DNA from: an uncultured bacterium
GTDB lineage: Bacteria > Hydrogenedentota > Hydrogenedentia > Hydrogenedentales > CAILVY01
Reading direction: 5' to 3'
Length of the DNA stretch: 64,000 nucleotides
NCBI GenBank assembly: GCA_937951485.1
Contig: CALEDJ010000023.1
Location: 6,194-70,193 of the forward strand
Both the position numbers and the translations under genes were made by a program. The first letter of the stretch is position 1. Each line of letters begins with the position of its first letter. Shown in pieces: positions 34,921 through 64,000 of the stretch. The notes beneath the pieces were generated by a model that worked only from the letters and a program-made list of their open reading frames with translations, searched no databases and was not told where the DNA came from.

Positions 34921-35060
34921 CGCGCCGGTTCATCTATTCGATTGTTGTGTTGCAGCGTAAGCGCAGCGAAGCGCCTCTTCTGCCATCATCCGCTCAAAAC
35001 ACGGACATGCCATTCAATGGATTTCGCCAGTGTTGTCCAAAACAGATTGTCAAGAAGATG

Positions 35061-35550
35061 GCAACATTTTAGCCGACTGAAGTAGTCACTGCGCATAGCC
35101 CCGTCATTGCGAGCGAAGCGCGGCAATCCGGATATAGTGTGCGCCTCAGATTGCGCAAACTGCTGGTCCCCATGCGCGCTATTCGGAATCAGTGGAAAAC
35201 CCTGCGATCCCTTTTGGAAAACCTGTGGGAGAAACCATGAAACCTCTGCTGAAATCGCCTGGAACTCTCTTGACTTTTGATACACGACCTTCGCTCAGCG
35301 GCGCTGCGCGCCGCTTCGCACGCTATGACGAAAAGAATGTGTCATGTGTGTTGATTCCAAAGGTTACGACAGTCGGCTGAAATGTTACCAAATCTCAAAT
35401 TTCAAATCTGAGTTACATTTTAGCGGAGTGGCGTGCAGCGGGGGATGTGTTGCCAATCCCCCCTTTGAAGGGGGTGGCGCGGAGCGCCGGGGGATGCAAA
35501 AGGCCGTATAGTGTGCCCCTGCGATCTATGCCATTCCACTAAAATGTTAC
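35061..35550. mobile_element. Nested insertion of two GTAACATTT-ended elements
   Basis: The first unit, 35061-35388, begins GCAACATTTTAGCCGACTG and ends CAGTCGGCTGAAATGTTAC, inverted copies with 2 differences in 19. The second, 35412-35550, begins GTTACATTTTAGCGGAGTGG and ends CCATTCCACTAAAATGTTAC, 3 differences in 20. The block is flanked by AGAAGATG at 35053-35060 and again at 35551-35558. The uninterrupted arrangement survives at 63.9 kb. No coding capacity. Confidence 0.72.
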
Positions 35551-35691
35551 AGAAGATGAAGGACCATGTCCAAAAGCCCTTGGAAACTCCTGTTGAATCA
35601 AGATAATGTAGCGGGCTTATCCTATATGCAAACCTCTGCGTGGGATTCCTGAGGCATCATTGACGCATGTACCAAGGTGTGCTGTTCTGTT

Positions 35692-35956
35692 CCCCCTCAC
35701 CCCACCCCTCTCCCGGAGGGAGAGGGAGCGACAGCGTTCGTCAGGTGGCGCGGTAAACGCCCTCTCCCGGAGGGAGAGGGAGCGACAGCGTCCGTCAGGT
35801 GGCGCGGTAAACGCCCTCTCCCGGAGGGAGAGGGAGCGACAGCGTCCGTCAGGTTGCGCGGTAAACGCCCTCTCCCGGAGGGAGAGGGAGCGACAGCGTC
35901 CGTCAGGTTGCGCGGTAAACGCCCTCTCCCGCTGGGAGAGGGATGGGGTGAGGGGG
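35692..35956. repeat. 54-bp hairpin tandem array between 23-bp inverted flanks
   Basis: Four complete 54-bp units start at 35706, 35760, 35814 and 35868, with a partial fifth at 35922. Each carries the palindrome CTCTCCCGGAGGGAGAG and a GCGACAGCGTYCGTCAGGT half. The units differ only at a few bases. The array is bounded by CCCCCTCACCCCACCCCTCT (from 35692) and its inverse ending at 35956, which match at 22 of 23 positions. There are no variable spacers, so it is not CRISPR. Confidence 0.9.
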
Positions 35957-36125
35957 AAGGCCAATACGATCGAAGGCTATTCACAACGCTAAGCATATTT
36001 TGGACAACACTGAGATTTCTCCCTGATTTCCTGCCGTGGCGCGTCTCGATATGAACTATCCCCGTGTGGCGCTGTATAGTCTTTGCCAGCGTCAGAGGAC
36101 AAGTGCGTATTCTGTGAGGTGAGCG

Positions 36126-63884: not shown

Positions 63885-64000
63885 CAGTGTTGTCCAAAAC
63901 AGATTGTTAAGGGAATGAAGGGCTATGCCCGGAACCCCTTGAGAATCCTGTGGAATCAAGATGATGTGGCGGGCTTATCCTATGCGTAAACCGCTCCGTG
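63885..64000. mobile_element. Second copy of the 17-bp-TIR element, cut by the window end
   Basis: CAGTGTTGTCCAAAACA (63885-63901) is identical to the left end at 35028. It continues GATTGTTAAGGGAATGAAGG and, further on, GAATCAAGATGATGTGGCGG then GCTTATCCTAT, aligning with the flanks of the 490-bp insertion at 35 kb but without any insertion. The right end lies beyond the window. Confidence 0.75.

What the first reader, a model, noticed from the sequence alone, without database searches (positions are those of the whole stretch)
35053..35558. A 490-bp insertion inside that element, flanked by AGAAGATG direct repeats, with its empty site preserved at 63.9 kb
AGAAGATG lies on both sides of the inserted block, and the 63.9-kb copy runs straight through the equivalent point (GTTAAGGGAATGAAGG). 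This gives an internal before/after comparison and suggests an 8-bp target duplication.
Basis: seen in the sequence. Interest (0 to 1): 0.75.

Follow-up and report, generated by a model that had tools for sequence, protein, structure and literature searches.

The report
Transposon remnant nested inside another remnant
A 490-base non-coding mobile element has jumped into a second, unrelated mobile element and duplicated 8 bases of it; both belong to known kinds of bacterial mini-transposon, but the same spot has been hit in at least four copies of the host element, in the same direction each time.

Summary
A 490-bp block (35061-35550) sits between two copies of AGAAGATG, inside an interspersed element (35028-36012) whose 63.9-kb copy lacks it. 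The 8-bp duplication is the rule for the inner family: 21 of 37 paired-end calls have flanks matching at 7-8 of 8 bases, 0.29 expected. The outer family makes 9-bp duplications. Both are MITEs (short elements with inverted-repeat ends and no transposase). The inner ends match an IS66-family element of the single-ORF (ISBst12-like) type in a same-order genome. The outer ends resemble IS4-family (DUF4372) elements that make 9-bp duplications. No IS66 transposase is detectable in this genome. A single-clade origin of the four is rejected (AU p = 5e-5), suggesting repeated targeting, although gene conversion is not excluded. Nested and composite MITEs are known; the hotspot is the one mildly surprising part.

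The parts
35019..35027 (.). left 9-bp target duplication of the outer element (GGATTTCGC, degraded: 7 of 9 match)
35028..36012 (+). outer MITE, 985 bp including the insert; ends CAGTGTTGTCCAAAA / TTTTGGACAACACTG (15 bp, 100% complementary)
   Evidence: (I13)
35053..35060 (.). left 8-bp target duplication AGAAGATG of the inner block
35061..35550 (+). inner composite block, 490 bp: A + spacer + B
35061..35388 (+). inner-family MITE A (ends GCAACATTTTAGCCGACTG / CAGTCGGCTGAAATGTTAC); relatives elsewhere about 203 bp
   Evidence: (I2)
35154..35288 (.). block of about 135 bp inside A with no relative in the fetched own-genome loci
35389..35411 (.). 23-bp AT-rich spacer between A and B (CAAATCTCAAATTTCAAATCTGA)
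35412..35550 (+). inner-family MITE B (ends GTTACATTTTAGCGGAGTG / CATTCCACTAAAATGTTAC) with an internal CCCCCTTTGAAGGGGG-type palindrome
   Evidence: (I6)
35551..35558 (.). right 8-bp target duplication AGAAGATG
35690..35958 (.). 54-bp-period array of CCCTCTCCCGGAGGGAGAGGG palindromes in the right part of the outer element
   Evidence: D1, I1
36013..36021 (.). right 9-bp target duplication of the outer element (AGATTTCTC)
63885..64000 (+). second outer-family copy without the block, cut off by the contig end; the unoccupied site AGGGAATG is at 63910-63917

Best explanation
A non-autonomous composite element of the IS66 end type (two MITEs, A and B, with a 23-bp spacer) transposed as one unit into an older non-autonomous element of the IS4 end type, making an 8-bp duplication AGAAGATG. 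Neither element encodes a protein; each would have been moved in trans by a transposase of its own family. The insertion point, 33 bp from the outer element's left end, is a recurrent target: the four outer copies that hold an inner element all hold it at this base and in this orientation, most likely from two or more separate insertions. Shown: the block, its duplication, the family-wide 8-bp and 9-bp rules, the two-part structure, the four same-site carriers, and matching ends on IS66 elements in same-order genomes. Inferred: mobilisation in trans, movement of the composite as a unit, and independent insertion rather than gene conversion.
For: 8-bp rule: 21 of 37 paired-end calls with at most 1 mismatch, 0.29 expected; 9-bp rule of the outer family: 13 of 30, 0.00 expected. 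In the block the 8-bp flanks match only for A-left with B-right (0 mismatches); A alone has 5 and B alone 6. A second composite in G016 (L107 1033-1757, 725 bp) shows the same pattern with 6 of 8 flank bases matching. IS66 link: L071 (G016) is 1525 bp with a single 490-aa ORF matching PF03050 and zf-IS66 and ends GTAACACTTTAGCCGTCTGAAG / GTAACACTTTAGCGGACTGAAG; MITEs in the same genome have near-identical ends and perfect or near-perfect 8-bp duplications (L114, L106); L234 is an IS66 of 1508 bp with GTAACTGTCTAGC ends and a perfect 8-bp duplication. IS4 link: L208, L209 and L210 carry DUF4372 and ends CACTGCTGTCCCAACG or CAGTGCTGTCCGG with perfect 9-bp duplications; L158 has DDE_Tnp_1 plus DUF4372 between ends CAGTGTTGTCCAAAACAGATAT / CGCTGCTGTCCAAAATAGGCGA. 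Same-site carriers: C23, C53, C5 and C62, found by junction patterns. Tree: a clade of the four outer carriers is rejected, p-AU 5.2e-5. Duplicated alleles differ between carriers but match within each: AGAAGATG x2, AGAAAATG x2, AGAAAACT/AGAAAATT.
Against: This genome has no detectable IS66 transposase (PF03050) and no PF01609 match; one short DUF4372 match (C58) has no matching ends, so present-day mobility is not supported. The IS66 relative with the closest ends (L071) has no intact 8-bp duplication. The intact IS4 relatives share only part of the outer end (CASTGCTGTCC). The tree of B elements does not reject one origin (p = 0.12), and two of the pairwise outer-carrier tests do not reject either (C23 with C53 p = 0.11; C53 with C5 p = 0.16). 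The fourth carrier (C62) has lost its left junction. A simple 8-base target model does not make this site the best one in the outer element (median rank 56 of 866 words).
Confidence: 0.82

Rival explanations
1. One ancestral insertion of a B element into an outer copy, then spread into other outer subfamilies by gene conversion or recombination between dispersed copies; the A part of the window copy was added or lost later through the directly repeated left ends.
For: All four carriers have the insert at the same base and in the same orientation. B elements of C53 and C5 are 93% identical over the 120 compared columns, and the B tree does not reject one origin (p = 0.12). The 8-mer is not an outstanding match to the family's other targets. 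A-left and B-left are direct repeats (D4), so deletion or exchange between them is plausible.
Against: Outer sequence right of the site matches different subfamilies and a single clade is rejected (p = 5.2e-5). The two duplication copies match within each carrier but differ between carriers, which under one origin needs parallel changes in both copies. B copies at unrelated sites (L020, L040) are about as similar to the carriers' B elements as these are to one another.
Confidence: 0.28
2. The inner element is ancestral to the outer family and most copies have lost it by precise deletion between the 8-bp repeats.
For: Carriers lie in several outer subfamilies; precise deletion would restore the empty site.
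Against: About 30 copies would need precise loss while four keep it. The identical duplications in C23 and C53 would have to be as old as the 10-20% divergence of the outer copies and to have changed in parallel.
Confidence: 0.06
3. Assembly artefact: a mis-joined repeat rather than a real nested insertion.
For: The genome is a 77-contig draft; several contig ends fall in outer copies, and the 63.9-kb copy is itself cut at a contig end.
Against: The 35-kb copy is well inside the contig with unique flanks on both sides, its junctions are flush with both ends and the duplication, and the same junction occurs in three other contigs with different sequence.
Confidence: 0.02

Closest known systems
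IS66 family, ISBst12 group (e.g. ISDge4 of Deinococcus geothermalis, PMC12898284)
   Same: GT(A/G)AC...(T/C)AGC ends (ISDge4: GTGACTACTCAGCA / GTAACTGCTCAGCA) and 8-bp duplications; a same-order relative with near-identical ends to this MITE family has a single transposase ORF
   Different: the window block has no transposase, is a fusion of two MITEs, and its genome has no detectable IS66 transposase
IS4 family, transposases with DUF4372 plus DDE_Tnp_1
   Same: CASTGYTGTCC ends and 9-bp duplications, as in L208-L210; L158 matches the outer end over CAGTGTTGTCCAAAACAGAT
   Different: outer copies are non-coding (mostly 0.3-0.6 kb) and carry palindrome arrays
TIME-COMP elements, composites made of two Tn3-derived MITEs (PMC4133298)
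   Same: two MITEs of one family bound a segment that transposes as one unit with one target duplication
   Different: Tn3 family with 5-bp duplications and kilobase-sized cores carrying genes; here IS66-type ends, 8 bp, and a 23-bp spacer
BrickBuilt MITE of Porphyromonas gingivalis with a nested 236-type MITE (PMC4596501)
   Same: one MITE nested in another, with tandem repeats inside the outer one and empty-site comparisons
   Different: IS5-type ends, variable short duplications, one nested case rather than repeated use of one site
IS elements that always hit the same position of REP palindromes (PMC1525189)
   Same: repeated use of one position inside a dispersed repeat
   Different: there IS3, IS110, IS4, IS256 and IS5 family elements target palindromes; here IS66-type MITEs hit a non-palindromic AT-rich 8-mer near a MITE end, in only a minority of copies

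Membership tests
MITE (inner family) | short, non-coding, inverted-repeat ends, many dispersed copies, target duplication of fixed length | tested here: met
   83-525 bp copies, about 70 ends within 1 mismatch of the consensus in the genome, 8-bp rule
MITE (outer family) | short, non-coding, inverted-repeat ends, many dispersed copies, target duplication of fixed length | tested here: met
   216-985 bp copies, 81 ends within 1 mismatch, 9-bp rule
IS66-derived (inner) | 8-bp duplication and GTAA-type ends | tested here: met
   canonical IS66 of the same order also show GTAA ends and 8 bp (L069, L231, L234)
IS66-derived (inner) | ends shared with an element that encodes an IS66 transposase | tested here: met
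   L071 in G016, PF03050 4e-38, ends matching the consensus over about 20 bp; a different family of the same order, not the window's genome
IS66-derived (inner) | IS66 transposase in the same genome able to act in trans | tested here: not met
   no PF03050 match in G000; the draft is 94% complete, so absence is not proven
IS4 (DUF4372)-derived (outer) | 9-bp duplication and ends shared with transposase-encoding elements | tested here: met
   L208-L210 with perfect 9-bp duplications and partly matching ends; L158 with closely matching ends and DDE_Tnp_1
IS4 (DUF4372)-derived (outer) | complete transposase in the same genome | tested here: not met
   one short DUF4372 match without matching ends, no PF01609 match
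composite (compound) transposon | two elements of one family bounding a segment, one duplication at the outermost ends only | tested here: met
   A-left/B-right flanks 0 mismatches; A alone 5, B alone 6
composite (compound) transposon | observed transposition as a unit | not testable with these tools
   needs a transposition assay or strain comparison

The most novel reading that the evidence does not exclude
IS66-type MITEs recognise one specific site and orientation near the left end of an unrelated IS4-type MITE and use it as a recurrent landing pad, so one MITE family serves as a safe harbour for another.
Probability: 0.35. Interest if true: 0.5.

Novelty: new member of a known kind. Interest (0 to 1): 0.34.

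Why it matters
It gives clean within-genome before/after evidence for two non-autonomous transposon families with different duplication lengths, extends composite-MITE formation to IS66-type ends, and offers four same-site insertions in one genome with which target choice by IS66 elements, poorly characterised so far, could be tested. It has no bearing on any gene product: the block lies between a predicted hydrolase gene and an ABC-transporter gene.

Tried and rejected
(1) Single element: rejected, because the internal ends at 35388 and 35412 and the flank comparison show two elements. (2) Outer element always containing the block: rejected. (3) IS66 or IS4 (PF01609) transposase in the genome itself: none found. 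(4) First attempt to find the outer family's autonomous partner at outer-end matches in same-order genomes: no transposase there; found instead through the named-genome scan (L158) and then DUF4372. (5) An ISAs1 origin of the outer family, guessed from the CAG ends, was dropped once the DUF4372 elements with 9-bp duplications were found. (6) A simple 8-base target model as the explanation of the hotspot: only weak support, site median rank 56 of 866 words. (7) Rfam: no RNA family in the window.

Full report
WHAT IS THERE. The stated sequence is exact. AGAAGATG occurs at 35053-35060 and 35551-35558, with 490 bp between the copies. The surrounding element runs from 35028 to 36012, with ends CAGTGTTGTCCAAAA / TTTTGGACAACACTG, and a second copy starts at 63885 without the block. 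The window is contig C23, 6194-70193, of a 4.55-Mb, 77-contig draft genome; the window end is the contig end, so the 63.9-kb copy is truncated. Contig C67 ends in a complete empty copy with the same left flank (L058).

TWO FAMILIES WITH TWO DUPLICATION RULES. I fetched about 80 stretches of the same genome around copies of either end. For the inner family, 37 paired-end calls gave 8-bp flanks with at most one mismatch in 21 cases against 0.29 expected from swapped flanks; 9-12 bp never did. For the outer family, 30 paired-end calls gave 9-bp flanks with at most one mismatch in 13 cases against 0.00 expected. The window's own outer copy has a degraded 9-bp pair, GGATTTCGC / AGATTTCTC. Within one mismatch of the consensus ends there are 70 inner and 81 outer ends in the genome.

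THE BLOCK IS A COMPOSITE. It has four inner-family ends: A at 35061-35388, a 23-bp spacer, B at 35412-35550. A is related to elements of about 203 bp elsewhere in the genome and holds an extra block of about 135 bp with no relative in the fetched loci; B is related to a separate subfamily. Flanks match at 8 of 8 only for A-left with B-right; taken alone A has 5 mismatches and B has 6. The simplest reading is that A and B came to lie side by side elsewhere and then moved together, as in the TIME-COMP elements (PMC4133298). A second such pair is in same-order genome G016 (L107 1033-1757, 6 of 8 flank bases).

WHICH TRANSPOSASES. In G016, which carries the same inner ends, a 1525-bp element (L071) encodes a single 490-aa protein matching PF03050 (4e-38) and zf-IS66 between ends GTAACACTTTAGCCGTCTGAAG and GTAACACTTTAGCGGACTGAAG; MITEs of that genome have nearly the same ends and 8-bp duplications. 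L234 (G038) is an IS66 element of 1508 bp, ends GTAACTGTCTAGC, perfect 8-bp duplication. The published ISDge4, of the single-ORF ISBst12 group of IS66, has GTGACTACTCAGCA / GTAACTGCTCAGCA ends and an 8-bp repeat (PMC12898284). For the outer family, DUF4372 elements in three same-order genomes (L208-L210, about 1.32 kb) have ends CACTRCTGTCCCAACG or CAGTGCTGTCCGG with perfect 9-bp duplications, and a Gallionellaceae contig has DDE_Tnp_1 plus DUF4372 between ends CAGTGTTGTCCAAAACAGATAT and CGCTGCTGTCCAAAATAGGCGA (L158). The window genome itself shows no PF03050 and no PF01609 match, and one short DUF4372 match, so both MITE families look orphaned in the assembled part.

THE SAME SITE IN FOUR COPIES. 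Junction searches over the whole genome find the inner end 33 bp inside the outer left end in exactly three places (C23, C53, C5), and the right junction in four (adding C62). All are in the same orientation. C53 holds a 223-bp B element with AGAAAATG x2, C5 a 145-bp B element with AGAAAACT/AGAAAATT, and C62 an 85-bp element whose left outer part is deleted flush to the inner end. No other position of the outer element was seen occupied by an inner element. On a tree of the outer sequence right of the site, holding the four together is rejected (p-AU 5.2e-5); C23 with C5 and C23 with C62 are also rejected as pairs, while C23 with C53 and C53 with C5 are not. The tree of B elements is too weak to decide (p 0.12). 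Duplicated alleles agree within, and differ between, carriers. I therefore favour two or more separate insertions into a preferred site, with gene conversion as the main rival. Oriented by internal sequence, the family's duplications favour A at positions 3-5 (A at position 3 in 20 of 26, exploratory), but a matrix from the non-carrier sites ranks this site only moderately (11th to 56th of 630-960 words in copies with the AGAA allele), so sequence preference alone does not explain the hotspot.

NOVELTY. Nested MITEs (PMC4596501), MITE-bounded composites (PMC4133298) and IS elements that repeatedly hit one position in a dispersed repeat (PMC1525189) are all known. I found no open-licence paper joining MITEs with IS66 in bacteria, which is weak evidence because only part of the literature is held. 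I file this as a new member of known kinds; the same-site, same-orientation occupancy is the part that would interest a specialist.

Noticed in passing
L027 568-671, L038 695-794, L043 672-771, L047 449-548 (own genome): A third MITE-like family, GAGGCATTTGCGAAAT...ATTTCGCAAATGCCTC, about 100-111 bp, sits inside the A-type inner elements of about 308 bp, with 5-bp repeats ATAAC or GTCAT in two of them.
   Followed up: partly
L019 326-541 (own genome): A self-nest of that third family: a 216-bp element containing a 111-bp copy at 388-498.
   Followed up: no
window 35690-35958: A 54-bp-period array of CCCTCTCCCGGAGGGAGAGGG palindromes inside the outer MITE; similar arrays of different length account for much of the size variation among outer copies.
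   Followed up: partly
window 35154-35288: A block of about 135 bp inside MITE A with no relative in the fetched own-genome loci and no obvious ends or duplication.
   Followed up: partly
L046 (C62), about 480-600: An inner element whose left side lies directly against unrelated sequence while its right side still abuts the outer element at the hotspot: looks like a deletion running flush from the inner element's end.
   Followed up: partly
L074 (G016:C25): MITEs and an IS66 remnant stacked side by side, sharing the repeat (C/T)ATGGTCG, as if each had inserted next to the last.
   Followed up: no
L135 4974-5293 (Ignavibacteria UBA2330): A 320-bp outer-like MITE with CAGTGCTGTCCAAAACAT ends and a perfect 9-bp duplication AGAGAAGTC, far from the window's order.
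   Followed up: partly
window 63885-64000 and contig C67 29594-29734: Contigs C23 and C67 share the same flank and outer-element end, so they probably adjoin; the assembly breaks inside this repeat family at many contig ends.
   Followed up: partly
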